A stretch of DNA of 30,199 nucleotides from a virus: positions 1 to 30,199 of IMG/VR virus record IMGVR_UViG_3300032308_001277. One strand, written 5' to 3'. How positions within the stretch are numbered: position 1 is the first letter of the stretch; each line of letters opens with the position of its first letter. The notes under the pieces are model-generated. The model searched no databases. It saw only the letters and a program-made list of their open reading frames with translations, and was not told where the DNA came from. This document shows positions 1,294 to 30,199 of this stretch, piece by piece. Position numbers and translations under genes: made by a program.

Positions 1294-3285
1294 GTGTTAA
1301 CTAAAACAAAACTAGAAAGTGGGGCAACTTATTATGCCAATCTACCAGTAGATGAGATTGGTGGGGAACTACAAAAAAAGGTAGATGACTACTATCAATA
1401 CGTAAGACTTAATGGGATGTTGGATCTTTGGAGGAAGTCTTACAGGCAATACTTCAGAGCAGGATTCCATCTAGGGGATACGGTCAGAGGTGGGGAGTCA
1501 GGAGAATACTCTTTCTTGTATGTCAATCACTTTAGATCCATCTTACAAGCTATCCTATCTATCACAGTCTCACAAAGACCGACATTCGATGCAAGGGCAG
1601 TAAACAACGATTACTCAAGTCAAGCACAAACTAAACTTGCACAGGGTCTACTTGATTATTACATGAGAGAAAAACGACTGGAGAGGTATGTAGCAGATGC
1701 AGTCGAGTTTGCTATTTGGAGTGGTGAAGGATACTTAGCTCTTAATTGGGATGTAGCACTTGGAAGAGAATATGGCGTAGGACAGAACAATGAACCAGTC
1801 AGGGAAGGGGACATTAAATTTACGTCATGCTCTGGAATTGATATCATTAGACATCCGTATCTCAGAAAGTTTGAAGATAGAAATTGGCTTATTGTAAGAG
1901 AGTTTGTAAACAAATATGAATTGGCAAAAAAGTATCCAGATTTTGCAGACGATATAATCAACTCAGAAATGTTTAGTCAAAATCTTAAGAATGACTTTCT
2001 AGATTTCTACAAAATTACAGACTCGGATCTAATCCCATTCTATAGATTCTACCACGACAAGACACAATCTGTTCCCAATGGGAGATACTCAGAATTTATC
2101 GAAGGTGGAACCGTGATCTTCGATAGTGATCTTCCTTATCCTGAGATACCAGTTTATGCTCTTCATCCCGGGTCAATCTATGCGAGTCCTTTTGGGTATA
2201 CAGTTTCTTTCGATATGCTTCCTATTCAGAGAGCTATAGACGGTCTTGCATCTACAATTCAAACTAATCAAGAAGCCTTTGGAGTACAGAATGTTCTAGT
2301 TCCAAAAGGATCTAACCTTGATGTAGAAGAATTAGTGGGAGGTCTTAACATAGTTCAGTATGACGCAAAGATGGGAAAGCCAGAACCAATGAATTTGACT
2401 GCAACACCTGTAGAGATTTTCAATCGTTACAAAGAATTAATCAATGAGATGGAAAGCATCTCAGGTATTAACTCGGTGGTAAGAGGAAACCCAGAGGCTA
2501 GTCTGAAGAGTGGAGCTGCATTGGCTTTAGTCGCATCACAGGCAATCCAGTTCTTACAATTAACACAACAGAGATACGTGCAACTATTAGAAGACTCGGG
2601 AACTGCTATCATCAATATGCTCAAATCCTATGCAGCAGTTCCAAGAGTGGCAACCATTGTAGGAAAAATGAATACTCCATATATGAAGGAATTCAAGGGA
2701 GAGGACCTCGAGAATGTTCAACGGGTTATTGTAGATATGGGCAATCCTTTGAGTAAGACCACAGCAGGGAAAATACAAATTGCAGATACTCTTCTTCAGT
2801 ATGGATTTATTAAGAACAGTGACATGTATTTCTCTGTATTGCAAAATGGAAGATTAGACTCGATCCTTGATCCAGTCCAAAGACAATTGATGCTAATAGC
2901 ACAAGAAAATGAACAGATGTCAGACGGTATAGATCCTCCTGTCCTTGTGACTGACAATCATCCTATGCACATACAAGAACACAAACAATTACTGGATAGT
3001 CCAGAAGCCAGAAACAATGTCGAATTGGTATCTATTGTCTTACAACATATGCAAGAACACATCCAACAATTACAGACTGGAGATCCTAATCTATTTGCTA
3101 TTCTAGGTATCCAATCTCTTCCTCCTACTCCTCCACAGGGTCAACCATCAATAGATCAAGTGACACAGGGAGCAAGCGTAAACCCATTGGAACAGACCAC
3201 AGGAGCTTTACCAAATATGCCTACAAACCCGATGACAGGAGAAAAATATCAGACAGCTAGTGGAGAATCTGCGGTGCCAATATGA
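1294..3285 (+). CDS. Portal protein, resembling the P22 type
   Basis: A 663-residue protein directly after terL and before the scaffold, the place and size of a podovirus portal, the dodecameric ring through which DNA is packaged and ejected. The N-terminal third (YRQYFRAGF, LYVNHFRSILQAILS, TVSQRPTFDARAVN) and the Trp-rich wing (EFAIWSGEGYLALNW) follow the pattern of P22-like portals. The C-terminal 80 residues are Gln/Pro-rich and probably disordered or barrel-like. It begins with GTG, nine bases after GAGG at 1281-1284, and ends overlapping the next gene by ATGA. Confidence rests on size, position and pattern rather than a single catalytic motif. Confidence 0.88.
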   Translation: MLTKTKLESGATYYANLPVDEIGGELQKKVDDYYQYVRLNGMLDLWRKSYRQYFRAGFHLGDTVRGGESGEYSFLYVNHFRSILQAILSITVSQRPTFDARAVNNDYSSQAQTKLAQGLLDYYMREKRLERYVADAVEFAIWSGEGYLALNWDVALGREYGVGQNNEPVREGDIKFTSCSGIDIIRHPYLRKFEDRNWLIVREFVNKYELAKKYPDFADDIINSEMFSQNLKNDFLDFYKITDSDLIPFYRFYHDKTQSVPNGRYSEFIEGGTVIFDSDLPYPEIPVYALHPGSIYASPFGYTVSFDMLPIQRAIDGLASTIQTNQEAFGVQNVLVPKGSNLDVEELVGGLNIVQYDAKMGKPEPMNLTATPVEIFNRYKELINEMESISGINSVVRGNPEASLKSGAALALVASQAIQFLQLTQQRYVQLLEDSGTAIINMLKSYAAVPRVATIVGKMNTPYMKEFKGEDLENVQRVIVDMGNPLSKTTAGKIQIADTLLQYGFIKNSDMYFSVLQNGRLDSILDPVQRQLMLIAQENEQMSDGIDPPVLVTDNHPMHIQEHKQLLDSPEARNNVELVSIVLQHMQEHIQQLQTGDPNLFAILGIQSLPPTPPQGQPSIDQVTQGASVNPLEQTTGALPNMPTNPMTGEKYQTASGESAVPI

Positions 3286-8013: not shown

Positions 8014-8313
8014 ATGCCTGGAATAATGAAGCAAGCTAAATTAAAAGCTATCATGGATATTATATCACAGATGGACGATTTAGAGATGGATCGTATGATT
8101 CCTAAAGAGATGGAACAAGAAAAGATGTATGACATGGAAGAAAAGCCAGTCAAGAAAGGCATTACGATCATGAAGCTAGAATCCTCCAAAAAACCTAAAA
8201 TGGAAATGGAAGAAGAAGAAGGCGAAGAGATGGAAGAAGAGGATGATGAGGAAATTGATCCACTCTCCTCACTTGCCAGACTCAAAGAGAGACTCAAAAA
8301 AGGCAGAATGTAA
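8014..8313 (+). CDS. Small acidic protein of the virion cluster
   Basis: A 99-residue protein with Met/Lys/Asp-rich N-terminal helices and a strikingly acidic stretch around residues 68-85 (EMEEEEGEEMEEEDDEE), then a basic C-terminus (RLKERLKKGRM). An AGGAG precedes the ATG. No family recognised. Lying between a basic mini-protein and the head-tail adaptor, it could be a DNA-mimic-like assembly factor or a scaffold helper; both are inference. Confidence 0.7.
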   Translation: MPGIMKQAKLKAIMDIISQMDDLEMDRMIPKEMEQEKMYDMEEKPVKKGITIMKLESSKKPKMEMEEEEGEEMEEEDDEEIDPLSSLARLKERLKKGRM

Positions 8314-14459: not shown

Positions 14460-15524
14460 ATGCCATTAGATTTTAGTTTTTTTCAAGACTCAAAAAAAAG
14501 ACCACAAAGTAATAGTTTTCTTGATTCTTTGCAATACCCAAGTATAGGCAGGGATCAACCTTCATTTAATCCAGAAGATGTATTTTTATTGCCAGAAGAT
14601 GTAAATAATTTCAAAAAACCTAGGAATATAAAAAATCCAATTACATCTACTCCACCAATGGCACAATCAAGAACGCTTACAATGACTCCTCCTTCTATGC
14701 CTACTCCAAGACCATCAATGCCAATAAACATGCCATCAATGGAAGAACCAGAACAGGACAGCACTAACTTTCTCGGATCTCTCCTTGCTCAAGGTGTGGC
14801 AAGTTTAGGAGCAGGCATACAAGGTGGGGACATTGCACAGGTAGGAAGATCATTCGAGGCAGGTAGACAGAGAGCGGAGCAAGATAGGAAAGCCAAAGCT
14901 TTGGTTGATCCTAAAAGCGAAGAGAGTAAACGAAGAAGAATGGTATTTCAAAAAGCACTTGGATTTTCTATTCCAGAAGAATATAGTGCTACCGATCTTA
15001 ATGACCCTGTAGTGTTGCAAAGTATTAGAGATAAGAAGATGCAAGCAATGGCTCCAAAGGGTGGAACTGGAATTGGAGGTGGTGTTCGTGGTGGTGGTGT
15101 AAGACAGGAGAAGCCAGAAAAGGAAAGAAAATTATCACAAGATGAAAGAGCATTATTAAATAATTCAGCTTTAGCATATAAAGCATTATTTGATATGGAA
15201 GATGCTATAAAAAGAGATGTTTCTAAAACTTCTTATTTTGGTGATAATGATTATACTTATGCAGCTAATAGATTTGTTGAAGGAATAGGAAGGATGCAAT
15301 CAGGTGGAGCCATTGGAACAGAAGAAGCTGAGAATTTTAAAAAACTTATTCCAGGAAGATTTGATAAAGAAGAAACTGCTAAAAATAAAATTAAAGATAT
15401 GAAAGCTGAATTAGAAGCTAGATTAAAATCTATAAATTTTGATCCAAAAGAAGTTTTAAAATCTAGAACATATACAGAAGATATATCTTCTCCAAATAAA
15501 GTTAAATTTAGTGAGGAACAATAA
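14460..15524 (+). CDS. Putative internal virion / ejection protein 3
   Basis: A 354-residue protein with a Pro/Met-rich, probably disordered N-terminus (residues 55-95: TPPSMPTPRPSMPINMPSM), a short glycine segment (GSLLAQGVASLGAGIQGGD), a central Gly-rich linker near residue 200 (GGTGIGGGVRGGGVRQE) and a helical C-terminal domain (residues 225-350). The ends of the gene (14460-14640 and 15120-15524) are much more AT-rich than its middle. No family recognised; placed among ejection proteins by location and composition. Confidence 0.6.
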   Translation: MPLDFSFFQDSKKRPQSNSFLDSLQYPSIGRDQPSFNPEDVFLLPEDVNNFKKPRNIKNPITSTPPMAQSRTLTMTPPSMPTPRPSMPINMPSMEEPEQDSTNFLGSLLAQGVASLGAGIQGGDIAQVGRSFEAGRQRAEQDRKAKALVDPKSEESKRRRMVFQKALGFSIPEEYSATDLNDPVVLQSIRDKKMQAMAPKGGTGIGGGVRGGGVRQEKPEKERKLSQDERALLNNSALAYKALFDMEDAIKRDVSKTSYFGDNDYTYAANRFVEGIGRMQSGGAIGTEEAENFKKLIPGRFDKEETAKNKIKDMKAELEARLKSINFDPKEVLKSRTYTEDISSPNKVKFSEEQ

Positions 15525-22954: not shown

Positions 22955-23122
22955 ATGGGAAGATTTAGCAATTGGGAACCTGCCTACAAATATCCATCCA
23001 TGTACACATATTGGGACAACCTAAACAGGAGTCCAAAATGGAACAAAATTTATTCAGCCAACCAAAACAAGACAATCAAATATCAATATTTGATTTTGAG
23101 AAACAGCAGGTTAGAACTGTAA
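22955..23122 (+). CDS. Possible 55-residue leader frame overlapping the antirepressor start
   Basis: ATG 22955 follows GGGTGG at a workable distance. The first 28 codons lie in the gap before the antirepressor and encode an unusually Trp/Tyr-rich stretch (NWEPAYKYPSMYTYWDNL); the rest runs out of frame through the start of the antirepressor gene. The aromatic content looks protein-like, and translation through the downstream start could control it. It may also be chance. Confidence 0.3.
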   Translation: MGRFSNWEPAYKYPSMYTYWDNLNRSPKWNKIYSANQNKTIKYQYLILRNSRLEL

Positions 23123-23769
23123 TTATTGACAATGATATCTGGTTTGTTGCCAGTGATGTCACTAGGATATTACAATACGTCAATGGCAAGCAGGCGATCA
23201 TAGAGCATTGCAAGGGGGTCTATAAAAAATACCCCCTTATGACATCTGGAGGAATGCAAGAATTATCAATAATAAATGAATCTGGAATTTATAAATTAGT
23301 CTTAGCATCAAAGAAACCAGAAGCAATTAAGTTTAAGGAATGGGTCACAGAGAAGATCCTTCCATCCATCCGAAAAACTGGATCCTACTCAGTCACTCCA
23401 AAGAAAGAACTCTCTATTGAGGAAATGACTTTGCTAGTCATCCAGAACATGCAATCCAAAATAGCAGATCAACAAAAACAACTAGAAGAGCAAAAACCAA
23501 AAGTTGAATTTGCGGACAAGATTAGTACAACAGAAAATGCAGTGTCCATTGGTGACTATGCCAAAGTTATTGGATGGGGTCAAAACAAATTATTCTCTCA
23601 ATTGAGAGATTTGAAAATATTAAATGACAGTAATATTCCTTACCAAAAGTTTATAGACGCAGGTTATTTTAAAGTAATTGAATGGATCTTGGAAAAGAAA
23701 AACCAAGCTAAATTTAAAACATTGATAACTGGAAAAGGGCAATTATATATTGCTGAGAGAATCAAATAG
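23038..23769 (+). CDS. ant: BRO-family antirepressor
   Basis: A 243-residue protein with an N-terminal BRO-N domain (about residues 20-120: VRTVIIDNDIWFVASDVTRIL, KKYPLMTSGGMQEL, INESGIYKLVLASKKPEAIKF, WVTEKILPSIRKTGSY) and a C-terminal ANT/KilAC-type domain (AVSIGDYAKVIGWGQNKLFSQ, GYFKVIEWI). Such proteins inactivate phage or prophage repressors or bind DNA. Start chosen at ATG 23038 because AGGAG (23027-23031) is six bases upstream; a TTG at 22972 has no site. No partner repressor is visible in this genome, so the target may be another phage's repressor or a non-classical one. Confidence 0.82.
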   Translation: MEQNLFSQPKQDNQISIFDFEKQQVRTVIIDNDIWFVASDVTRILQYVNGKQAIIEHCKGVYKKYPLMTSGGMQELSIINESGIYKLVLASKKPEAIKFKEWVTEKILPSIRKTGSYSVTPKKELSIEEMTLLVIQNMQSKIADQQKQLEEQKPKVEFADKISTTENAVSIGDYAKVIGWGQNKLFSQLRDLKILNDSNIPYQKFIDAGYFKVIEWILEKKNQAKFKTLITGKGQLYIAERIK

Positions 23770-23779
23770 AATCAATATC

Positions 23780-23813
23780 AATCTACGATGCTAAAAATTT
23801 AGAATCGTAGATT
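23780..23813. other. 34-base near-perfect palindrome before the replication gene
   Basis: AATCTACGAT (23780-23789) and ATCGTAGATT (23804-23813) form a perfect ten-pair outer stem, and CTAAA/TTTAG (23791-23795 with 23798-23802) continue it inside, broken only by one G-A mismatch. The site lies between the antirepressor stop and the ATG of the RepO-like gene, ten bases before it. It lacks a T-run, so it is more likely an operator, a cruciform or an mRNA hairpin affecting initiator expression than a terminator. Confidence 0.8.
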
Positions 23814-23823
23814 AAGAGGAAAT

Positions 23824-25194
23824 ATGACAGACTATAAAAAAATCAGACAAGATCAAAAACAAGAAGATGATCTCTATCCATTCTTAGACGAGAAGTATAC
23901 TCAGATTCCCAACGAAATTTTTGACACATGGTTCAAACTTTTAACACCTTCCCAGAATGTCCTAGTTATGGTCTTTTGGCGTTTACTCTATGGCTATAAT
24001 AGGAAAGTACATCCAATTAGTTTTAGCCTGCTCAGTGCTTATTCTGGGTTAAGTGACAGAACCTGCAAGAGAGAAGTCAAGAATCTTATTAAGTTTAGGA
24101 TCGTCAAGCTAAAATCTAGAGGAGGGATCAACAAACCCAACCAGTATGGAATCAGAAAACTAACAGAGAATGATATTTTGAACATAATCAAAATCAATTC
24201 TAAAGGAAAAAATGTCACTACACAAATAGATATATATTTCAATGATAGTAGTGACAAAATTACACCCCTTAGTAGTGACATTTTAGGTCAAATAGGGGTG
24301 ACAGAATGTCCCACATTAAATACAAATAGAAGAATAAATAAAAATTGTGAAATAAAAAGCGAGCCTACCCAAGAAACACCTCACAGAGAACAGAGAACAG
24401 AATTAGCTCACACATATATGATGGAGCCTTATTCAATTGAGAAGCTACTGGACAAATCCTACAACTTTCTACAATACGCAGGATTTGGATTTACTAAGAA
24501 CCCTAGGCATATCCTAGATAGGATCTACAAAATGCTTCCAGCCGATTATCAGGTAAAGGAGGATGCCAAGGATCCCGAGATCATTAAACAAGCCATAGAA
24601 AAGTTTGAGAGCAGTCTGGAGCCTGAAAGAGCAGCCATCTCAAAGAAGCTTTTTCAGGGAGTGGAGGCAATGGCTAAATTGTACATTATCAAAAAGTACG
24701 GTGAAGAGTTTAGGGATGTTTTGTATCCTAAGATCTTAAACGATAACTTGATCCTTTACCTGAATTGTAACCCTACTCTCAAGTACTGCTTGCAGGGGTT
24801 TAGCAACGACATTGATGGAGTCTACTCAGAGATCAATCGGATTATCAAGAAGAGACAGGAACAGGAAGAGAGGGAGAGGATCAAAGAGGAGCAAAGATAC
24901 CTGGAAAGGGAAAGGATCAAAGCAGAAGCACAGTCCAGACCACATTTTTCAGATGACGATATCCATGCTCTTGGATTGAGGACGGTTCCAGAACTCTTAC
25001 AAGCTATGCAGGACAAAGGAAGTAATATTGATCTCTTGGATAAAAAATATCAGGCTACAGATCAGACGATAACCGATACAGAGAGGGAGAGACTCGGGGA
25101 GCTACTGAGGATTAAGATGACTAATGGAAACTTGGATTTGTCAGAGGAGAATGAGTATTTGGCATTGAATAGGAAGATGAAAGGGAATGGATAA
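23824..25194 (+). CDS. RepO-like replication initiator
   Basis: A 456-residue protein. Residues about 18-110 form a winged-helix domain of the phage replication protein O type: YTQIPNEIFDTWFK, LLYGYNRKVHPISFSLLSAY, SGLSDRTCKREVKNLIKF, KPNQYGIRK. A low-complexity linker (residues 125-200) is encoded by the putative origin repeats, then a helical C-terminal part with a charged coiled coil (residues 335-365) that could contact a helicase. By analogy with lambda O it would bind iterons within its own gene and recruit host DnaB. No helicase motifs are seen. The gene overlaps thyX by eight bases. Confidence 0.78.
   Translation: MTDYKKIRQDQKQEDDLYPFLDEKYTQIPNEIFDTWFKLLTPSQNVLVMVFWRLLYGYNRKVHPISFSLLSAYSGLSDRTCKREVKNLIKFRIVKLKSRGGINKPNQYGIRKLTENDILNIIKINSKGKNVTTQIDIYFNDSSDKITPLSSDILGQIGVTECPTLNTNRRINKNCEIKSEPTQETPHREQRTELAHTYMMEPYSIEKLLDKSYNFLQYAGFGFTKNPRHILDRIYKMLPADYQVKEDAKDPEIIKQAIEKFESSLEPERAAISKKLFQGVEAMAKLYIIKKYGEEFRDVLYPKILNDNLILYLNCNPTLKYCLQGFSNDIDGVYSEINRIIKKRQEQEERERIKEEQRYLERERIKAEAQSRPHFSDDDIHALGLRTVPELLQAMQDKGSNIDLLDKKYQATDQTITDTERERLGELLRIKMTNGNLDLSEENEYLALNRKMKGNG
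24213..24360. other. Candidate replication origin: iterons plus AT-rich element inside the initiator gene
   Basis: GTAGTGACA occurs at 24248-24256 and 24272-24280, a variant GGGGTGACA at 24295-24303, and inverted copies at 24213-24221 (TGTCACTAC, exact complement) and 24307-24314 (TGTCCCAC, degenerate). The three direct copies are spaced 24 and 23 bases apart, about two helical turns. They are followed by a very AT-rich stretch (24315-24359). Iterons then an AT-rich unwinding element within the initiator gene is the design of the lambda origin. The function is inferred. Confidence 0.6.
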
Positions 25195-25867
25195 TAATAA
25201 CTCAGTCGAACTAATTGGAATCTATGGAGATGACGAACTGATTGCATGTTCTGCATGGACAAGCACATCCAGAGAATTGACAATGGAGAAAAAAAATAGA
25301 ATTAATCAATTGATTAACGATCTTTGGTCTAATGGCCATGAGACTCCATTCGAGAAGGGAGTAGTACATTTTTTGGTGAATTGCGACATTGCAAGCCATA
25401 TCCATCTTCTTAAACATCGTATGTCTAGTCTGAATGCAGAATCAGCGAGATACAAAGAATTAAAAGAGGACAAGTTTTATATTCCAAGTGACTGGAATGG
25501 AATTAGGCATGATGGACAAGTTGAATACAATCATGAATGGAGATACATACTTGAAAATTATTCTAAATTAGGAAATGATTTGTATCATAAATGCTTGGAA
25601 GACTTAACGCCAATACTCGGAAGGAAAAGAGCAAAAGAATCAGCAAGGTATTTTAAGACTTATAATAGCCAGATCCAAAGTGATGTTATGTTTAATATGA
25701 GAAGCTTTGCAAACTTTTTAAAACTTAGAAAGTCAGAGCATGCACAATTGGAAATTAATGAGATTGCTAGTAGGATGTTGGATCTTGTCAGACAGACAGG
25801 AAAGTTTGAACATACTTTGAATGCGTGGGGGTATGATAGAATAATAGACAATGGAGATATGGAATGA
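25187..25867 (+). CDS. thyX: Flavin-dependent thymidylate synthase
   Basis: A 226-residue protein of normal ThyX length, making dTMP from dUMP with methylene-tetrahydrofolate, FAD and NADPH. The signature reads KHRMSSLNAESARY (residues 76-89), matching RHRxxSxNxxSxR except for Lys in place of the first Arg. HETPFEK (51-57) corresponds to the usual HxSPFEH, again with Lys for the last residue. SEHAQLEINEIA near the C-terminus matches the AQxEI substrate-binding segment. Both changes lie at or near the FAD/dUMP site, so it may be a divergent but active branch. It is translated by overlap with the initiator gene, giving a replication unit. Confidence 0.9.
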   Translation: MDNNNSVELIGIYGDDELIACSAWTSTSRELTMEKKNRINQLINDLWSNGHETPFEKGVVHFLVNCDIASHIHLLKHRMSSLNAESARYKELKEDKFYIPSDWNGIRHDGQVEYNHEWRYILENYSKLGNDLYHKCLEDLTPILGRKRAKESARYFKTYNSQIQSDVMFNMRSFANFLKLRKSEHAQLEINEIASRMLDLVRQTGKFEHTLNAWGYDRIIDNGDME

Positions 25868-29696: not shown

Positions 29697-30199
29697 ATAA
29701 TACAAGATACATAAATAATCTGATTGAGGATGGTTGGAAGAATGCAGACTTGTACTACAAACTTAAAGATCATCAAATAGATTTATATAATCAGATTACT
29801 AAGGGAAATAATAAAAAGCACGTAGTCAACTGTTCACGTAGATTTGGGAAGTCTTACACATTATGCCTTATAGCTATCGAACATGCTCTTAAAAGTAAAG
29901 TCCATGTAAGATTTGCGGCACCGACAAGTAAACAATTAAAAGAAATCATACAACCTATTATGGTAAAGATTTTATCAGATTGTCCTGAAGAATTAAAACC
30001 AGATTTCAAAAGTCAAGACAATAAATATGTATTTCAGAATGGATCTGAGATACATATAGCAGGATGCGACAATGGAAACTCGGAGAATCTAAGAGGTCAT
30101 GAGTCTGATTTGAATCTTATAGATGAGGCAGGGTTTATAGATGATCTGGAATACGTTCTCAAAGATATTCTAATGCCACAGACATTGACTACAGGAGGG
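29693..30199 (+). CDS. terL: Large terminase subunit, N-terminal part (continues at base 1)
   Basis: Starts at TTG 29693, overlapping the previous stop as TTGA, and runs off the window end; it continues without frame break at position 124 after the shared 123 bases. Residues 47-54 (CSRRFGKS) form the Walker A loop in the deviant form typical of phage terminases, followed by VRFAAPTSKQLKEII and the coupling region. The last bases encode the Walker B region also present at the left end. Full gene 463 residues, unbroken. See the left part for the nuclease domain. Confidence 0.92.
   Translation, partial: MNNTRYINNLIEDGWKNADLYYKLKDHQIDLYNQITKGNNKKHVVNCSRRFGKSYTLCLIAIEHALKSKVHVRFAAPTSKQLKEIIQPIMVKILSDCPEELKPDFKSQDNKYVFQNGSEIHIAGCDNGNSENLRGHESDLNLIDEAGFIDDLEYVLKDILMPQTLTTGG
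30077..30199. repeat. Direct terminal repeat, right copy
   Basis: Identical over all 123 bases to positions 1-123, joining the two ends of the window inside terL. Non-redundant genome length is therefore 30,076 bases. Confidence 0.95.

What the first reader, a model, noticed from the sequence alone, without database searches (positions are those of the whole stretch)
24213..24360. Lambda-like origin of replication embedded in the RepO-like gene
Three direct 9-base repeats (two GTAGTGACA, one GGGGTGACA) 23-24 bases apart, an exact inverted copy at 24213 and a degenerate inverted copy at 24307 precede a roughly 45-base stretch with very few G/C. All lie in the linker-coding part of the initiator gene. 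The inverted copies argue that the repeats act at DNA level and are not just a repeated Ser-Asp protein motif.
Basis: partly seen in the sequence, partly recalled or inferred. Interest (0 to 1): 0.75.

Follow-up and report, generated by a model that had tools for sequence, protein, structure and literature searches.

The report
Phage replication origin inside initiator gene
This phage very probably starts copying its DNA at a short row of protein-binding sites hidden inside the gene for the protein that binds them, as phage lambda does, and comparison with sister phages shows that the DNA-reading part of the protein and its binding sites are exchanged and altered together.

Summary
Observation confirmed: two GTAGTGACA, one GGGGTGACA, an exact inverted copy (24213) and a degenerate one (24307) precede an 87% A+T stretch, all inside an O-like initiator gene (23824-25194, Phage_rep_O). 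The copies are read in three codon phases, so the repeat is DNA-level. Three of the genome's four exact 9-mers lie here. The array alone is only modestly beyond chance; comparison carries the case. (1) A pure DNA search of 2.9 million viral contigs for the spaced pair found 47; at least 27 of 40 distinct ORFs at the matches are phage replication initiators. (2) A site profile from other phages' initiator genes ranks three window copies first, second and third in the genome. (3) Sister phages, mostly 82-90% identical, lose that identity upstream of 24381: they have another winged helix and other iterons (GTTACCCCAGAGGTAAC) in the same place. (4) A relative with the sisters' winged helix and iterons has a diverged C-terminus. 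(5) Where the winged helix diverged, all five iterons changed in concert while the adjacent A+T tract stayed almost unchanged. Best explanation: a lambda-type origin, with initiator DNA-binding domain and iterons moving as one cassette. New member of a known kind. Not met: a global GC-skew turning point and a recognisable lambda-P loader gene.

The parts
23824..25194 (+). O-like replication initiator gene, 456 aa: N-terminal winged helix, linker that carries the origin, conserved helical C-terminal region
   Evidence: PF04492 1.5e-9, phrog_678 9.9e-11; DBD model with HTH and wing, pLDDT 77
23884..24186 (+). DNA-binding (winged-helix) part; recognition helix S-D-R-T-C-K-R-E-V-K-N-L near residues 77-88
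   Evidence: AlphaFold2 model; best PDB fold hit is 4pql, followed closely by 5kbj and 4pt7, which I recognise as staphylococcal plasmid RepA_N initiators (E 0.002-0.007)
24213..24221 (-). iteron, exact inverted copy (TGTCACTAC on +)
   Evidence: profile from other phages ranks this site 3rd in the genome
24248..24256 (+). iteron 1 GTAGTGACA (followed by AAA and the weak dyad partner TTACACCCC)
   Evidence: profile rank 1
24272..24280 (+). iteron 2 GTAGTGACA
   Evidence: profile rank 11
24295..24303 (+). iteron 3 GGGGTGACA, read in a codon phase other than that of iterons 1 and 2
   Evidence: profile rank 2
24307..24315 (-). degenerate inverted half-site TGTCCCACA, dyad partner of iteron 3
   Evidence: profile rank 25
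24313..24357 (.). A+T-rich stretch (6 G/C in 45; 29 A, 10 T on +), presumed unwinding element
   Evidence: same position as the A+T tracts of lambda, CBP1 and the sister phages
24381..25194 (+). C-terminal region shared with the sister phages (94% and 85% aa identity in L002 and L003); nucleotide homology resumes at 24381, just past the origin

Best explanation
24213-24357 is the replication origin of this roughly 30-kb phage. The winged-helix N-terminus of the O-like initiator binds the GTAGTGACA-type iterons in the linker-coding part of its own gene and assembles an O-some-like complex, and the adjacent A+T stretch is opened there so that the replicative helicase can be loaded with the help of the C-terminal part or a partner. 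Because origin and DNA-binding domain lie side by side in one gene, they are exchanged between phages as one cassette and change together. Shown by sequence: gene, array, place, co-exchange, concerted change, recurrence of the same sites in other phages' initiator genes. Inferred: binding, unwinding, helicase loading.
For: O-like initiator gene. Repeats in three codon phases, so not a peptide repeat. DNA-only search for the window's spaced 9-mer pair in 2.9 million viral contigs: 47 contigs; at least 27 of 40 distinct ORFs at the matches are replication initiators (phrog_678), in several winged-helix families. Control with the reversed 9-mer: 27 contigs, at most a handful of 20 scanned ORFs initiator-like, with no such family matching more than 2. 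Profile from 19 other initiator genes: window sites 24244+, 24291+ and 24203- are the three best of about 60,000 positions. Sister phages are collinear with the window (mostly 82-90% nt identity) but lose homology between about 22.4-22.7 kb and 24381; there they encode a winged helix only 35% identical and other iterons, GTTACCCCAGAGGTAAC, mostly 22-23 bp apart. L091 keeps that winged helix and iterons while its C-terminus is 53% identical. L092 (DBD 78%): iteron columns 5 and 7 changed in 5/5 copies and 8 and 13 in 4/5, other columns mostly none; 0 of 100,000 permutations as concerted; the first 28 nt of the following A+T tract identical, 5 changes in 50. De novo in-gene motifs in 26 of 30 O-type initiators, lambda's ATCCCTCA recovered as control.
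Against: The array is short (4 half-sites against about 9 in the sisters) and only modestly beyond chance alone. Only one site has a good dyad partner. No global GC-skew turning point. The A+T tract is one of 12 equally AT-rich stretches. No recognisable lambda-P or DnaC-like gene found. No binding or replication data. The profile comes mostly from genes found through the window's own 9-mer, so its left half is partly circular; the dyad half and the location in initiator genes are not.
Confidence: 0.9

Rival explanations
1. The repeats are operator sites through which the initiator, or another regulator, controls transcription, and replication starts elsewhere.
For: Winged-helix proteins often autoregulate; inverted pairs resemble operators; no global skew turn here.
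Against: The sites lie about 390-490 nt inside the coding region, not at the promoter. The intergenic palindrome at 23780-23813 is a better operator candidate and has another sequence. Array plus A+T tract in the O linker matches oriLambda and recurs in most O-type genes.
Confidence: 0.05
2. The repeats are a by-product of a low-complexity or repetitive linker peptide, with no role in DNA.
For: Two of the copies are read in one frame as Ser-Ser-Asp; synonymous shuffles often give as many 8-mer matches.
Against: Copies in three codon phases and both orientations; the linker peptide is not conserved in relatives while a DNA array in the same place is; other phages read the same site as GSD, VVT or CHH; concerted change in L092.
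Confidence: 0.03
3. Chance cluster; the true origin of this phage lies elsewhere.
For: One in a hundred shuffled windows has such a 9-mer cluster, and a looser test gives p about 0.2.
Against: The three best profile sites of the genome coincide with it; same place as the iterons of the sisters and of lambda.
Confidence: 0.02

Closest known systems
Phage lambda ori in gene O (oriLambda), and the Stx-phage origins
   Same: O-family N-terminal domain, iterons in the linker-coding region at about 20-24 bp spacing, A-rich A+T tract immediately downstream (PMC7466680). Joint O/ori type specificity of lambda, phi80 and 82 hybrids is classical (Furth and Yates 1978, listed in the references of PMC6022878; content from my own knowledge).
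   Different: Different iteron sequence class (GTAGTGACA instead of ATCCCTCA), mixed orientation, fewer dyads, a 270-residue C-terminal region with no recognised relative in lambda, no recognisable P gene downstream; a ThyX gene overlaps the end of O instead.
GTTACC/GGTAAC-iteron O initiators (L002, L003, L090, L091; enterobacterial L132, L159, L161, L166)
   Same: Same in-gene place; in L002 and L003 the C-terminal region is 94% and 85% identical.
   Different: Winged helix (L002) only 35% identical to the window's and another iteron core.
RepA_N plasmid initiators (pSK41 RepA)
   Same: Initiator with N-terminal DNA-binding domain binding four boxes located centrally within rep, linker encoded by the ori (PMC5703833); the best PDB fold hits of the window's DBD are, as I recognise them, of this type (4pql, 5kbj, 4pt7).
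   Different: No RepA_N match by Pfam; fold similarity is weak (E 0.002-0.007).
Caldibacillus phage CBP1 replication protein O
   Same: The only O relative found in the annotated phage collection (31.9% identity over the DBD), with its own in-gene repeats and adjacent A+T tract.
   Different: Repeats of another type (TTGCTTAC/TGCTGACA).

Membership tests
Lambda-type (O/iteron) phage origin | Initiator of the Phage_rep_O family | tested here: met
   PF04492 1.5e-9, above the curated cut-off
Lambda-type (O/iteron) phage origin | Iterons about two helical turns apart inside the linker-coding part of the initiator gene | tested here: met
   Spacings 35 (inverted), 24 and 23 at codons 129-163
Lambda-type (O/iteron) phage origin | Iterons with interrupted dyad symmetry | tested here: inconclusive
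   Clear only at 24295-24315, weak at 24248-24268, absent at two copies
Lambda-type (O/iteron) phage origin | A+T-rich tract adjoining the iterons on the downstream side | tested here: met
   87% A+T over 45 nt, A-biased on +
Lambda-type (O/iteron) phage origin | Iterons and DNA-binding domain co-vary between types | tested here: met
Lambda-type (O/iteron) phage origin | Helicase-loader gene P (or DnaC-like) downstream | tested here: not met
   No loader family among the ORFs scanned; small ORFs were not scanned, so an unrecognised loader is possible. This is a feature of the lambda replication module rather than of the origin itself
Lambda-type (O/iteron) phage origin | Skew turning point at the origin | tested here: inconclusive
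   Only a local detrended minimum at 24551; global minimum at 14792
Lambda-type (O/iteron) phage origin | O binds the iterons and unwinds the A+T tract | not testable with these tools
   Needs purified protein
RepA_N plasmid origin | RepA_N domain | tested here: not met
   Pfam finds only Phage_rep_O

The most novel reading that the evidence does not exclude
Most phage winged-helix initiators may carry their origin in their own gene, and two iteron cores, GGTGAC(A) and GGTAAC, may recur across otherwise dissimilar initiator families (Phage_rep_O, HTH_36, DnaD-like), so that natural sets of similar domains with different iterons (L017/L056 against L132/L159/L161; L002 against L092) could be used to read out a recognition code between the winged helix and its DNA.
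Probability: 0.45. Interest if true: 0.65.

Novelty: new member of a known kind. Interest (0 to 1): 0.5.

Why it matters
It places the origin of an uncultured group of metagenome-derived phages and gives a natural experiment: sister genomes in which initiator DNA-binding domain plus iterons were exchanged as one cassette, or in which all iterons changed together with the recognition helix, while the rest of the initiator or the unwinding tract stayed the same. That makes iteron recognition by phage initiators testable by domain and iteron swaps.

Tried and rejected
GC-skew as locator: no global turning point. A+T stretch as distinctive mark: rejected, 12 equal stretches. De novo repeat statistics alone: not sufficient for the window's short array. 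Relatives of the window's own DBD in viral contigs: none. Relatives of the C-terminus in one genome per species: none; host unknown. Universal recognition-helix code (S-x-R-T/S-V-x-R for GTGAC): rejected, not consistent over families. Fixed differences between enterobacterial GTGAC and GTAAC initiators are not significantly concentrated in the recognition helix (P 0.12). Full-length structure model too weak overall (pLDDT 56). Alignment A4 too divergent for a collection scan. Rfam and tRNA: nothing in the window. Literature search by motif letters gave only unrelated papers.

Full report
OBSERVATION. The sequence is as described. The O-like ORF runs 23824-25194. TGTCACTAC 24213-24221, GTAGTGACA 24248-24256 and 24272-24280, GGGGTGACA 24295-24303 and TGTCCCACA 24307-24315 are followed by 24313-24357 with 6 G/C in 45. 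The codon phases are 2, 1, 1, 0, 0: iterons 1 and 2 are read Ser-Ser-Asp, iteron 3 is read Gly-Val-Thr, the inverted copies Asn-Val-Thr-Thr and Glu-Cys-Pro-Thr. This is a DNA repeat, not a peptide repeat.

CHANCE. The record has an exact 123-base terminal repeat, so the genome is probably a complete circle (or circularly permuted) of 30,076 bp. GTAGTGACA occurs four times in it, three of them here. Only one other 9-mer recurs three times within 120 nt, and it is a coding-frame repeat at 8134-8238; 1 of 100 shuffled windows has any such cluster. A looser 8-mer statistic does not separate this short array from synonymous or base shuffles. The array alone is therefore modest, and comparison has to carry the case.

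THE SAME SITE IN OTHER PHAGES. A pure DNA search for GTAGTGACA, 13-15 bases, GTAGTGACA in 2.9 million viral contigs found 47 contigs. Forty distinct ORFs at the matches were scanned: phrog_678 (replication initiation O-like) matches 28 of 41 including the window, with further initiator families; by Pfam they fall into Phage_rep_O, HTH_36 and DnaD-type groups. The site is typically a dyad, about GGTAGTGACA-n-TGTCACC, at 22-24 bp, read in any frame. The reversed 9-mer as control gave 27 contigs (five spacings allowed instead of three), and no initiator family matches more than 2 of the 20 ORFs scanned. A profile from 19 other initiator genes places the window's 24244+, 24291+ and 24203- sites first, second and third among about 60,000 positions. 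The left half of that profile is partly circular, because most of these genes were found by the 9-mer; the dyad half and the position inside initiators are not. A stricter pattern in one genome per species gave 11 hits, four of them in initiator-like ORFs (Omnitrophota, Rahnella, an unclassified bacterium, Bacillus).

SISTER PHAGES. Records of 30,861, 30,278 and 14,535 bp align with most of the window, mostly at 82-90% nt identity. In the first two the homology breaks at about 22,672 or 22,354 and resumes at 24,381-24,383, shortly after the A+T stretch. There they encode another winged helix (35% identity) and other iterons, five copies near GTTACCCCAGAGGTAAC, mostly 22-23 bp apart, followed by an A+T tract, while the C-terminal 270 residues are 94% and 85% identical. 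A further record, L091, has the L002-type winged helix (95%) and the same iterons but a C-terminus of 53% identity. So domain and iterons stay together and the C-terminus does not stay with them.

CONCERTED CHANGE. L092 has an L002-type domain of 78% identity. All five iterons changed in the same columns: position 5 and 7 in 5/5, 8 and 13 in 4/5, others mostly none; 0 of 100,000 permutations are as concerted. The overall change rate is not higher in iterons than in spacers (24/85 against 9/37); it is the pattern that is concerted. The first 28 nt of the following A+T tract are identical, 5 changes in 50. Amino-acid changes concentrate in the recognition-helix region (6 of 13 against 8 of 67, Fisher p 0.0085; the region was chosen after seeing the alignment). 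A second contrast: enterobacterial O domains about 70% identical carry GTGACA iterons (L017, L056) or GTTACC iterons (L132, L133, L159, L161, L166), with P/S, Q/E and T/C differences at the start of the recognition helix; the concentration there is not significant (P 0.12).

GENERALITY. In 30 O-type initiators a de novo caller finds nominally significant repeats directly after the winged helix in most (about 24-26; 60 shuffles each, many of the genes chosen by motif), and recovers lambda's ATCCCTCA as positive control. A pattern for the sisters' GTTACC/GGTAAC site found 49 contigs, and 27 of 36 ORFs scanned match phrog_678.

STRUCTURE. The DBD model (pLDDT 77) is a winged helix with helices at 47-54 and 58-70 and a two-stranded wing. 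The closest solved folds, at weak E-values, include 4pql, 5kbj and 4pt7, which I recognise as staphylococcal RepA_N plasmid initiators. In pSK41 Rep the four binding boxes lie centrally within rep and the encoded linker is dispensable (PMC5703833).

WHAT DOES NOT FIT. No global skew turning point. No recognisable loader gene. Only one good dyad. The A+T stretch is not unique.

CONCLUSION. A lambda-type origin inside the initiator gene, in a group of phages for which none is described in the annotated collection searched (one distant relative, Caldibacillus phage CBP1). The principle, and joint specificity of O and ori, are classical for lambdoid phages (PMC7466680; Furth and Yates 1978 as listed in PMC6022878). 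New, as far as I could search, are the group, the natural cassette exchange, the concerted iteron change and the observation that the same two iteron cores recur in otherwise dissimilar initiators.

Noticed in passing
1-123 and 30077-30199: Exact 123-base terminal repeat: the record is probably a complete circular or circularly permuted genome of 30,076 bp; a sister record (30,278 bp) has a 123-base repeat too.
   Followed up: partly
23780-23813: Intergenic palindrome AATCTACGATGCTAAA/TTTAGAATCGTAGATT just before the initiator gene; relatives have a hairpin of other sequence (CCGAGTAGG..CCTACTCGG) in the same place: operator, attenuator or leader element.
   Followed up: partly
22972-23769: Bro-N/KilAC antirepressor gene in the exchanged block; the first sister (G004) has a different 246-aa ORF there.
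   Followed up: no
25187-25867: ThyX-type thymidylate synthase gene overlapping the end of the initiator gene by 8 bases.
   Followed up: no
1294-3282: P22-like portal; nearest annotated phage is that of Silvanigrella aquatica (28% over 84%), a hint at the host group only.
   Followed up: no
8134-8238: ATGGAAGAA three times at spacings that are multiples of three, probably a coding repeat.
   Followed up: no
L040 9748-9833: Array of GTAGTGACAAGATGGTGAC-type repeats not inside a recognisable initiator ORF.
   Followed up: no
L132, L133, L159, L161, L166 against L017, L056: Enterobacterial O proteins about 70% identical in the DNA-binding domain carry different iteron cores (GTTACC or GTGACA), a good set for specificity work.
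   Followed up: partly
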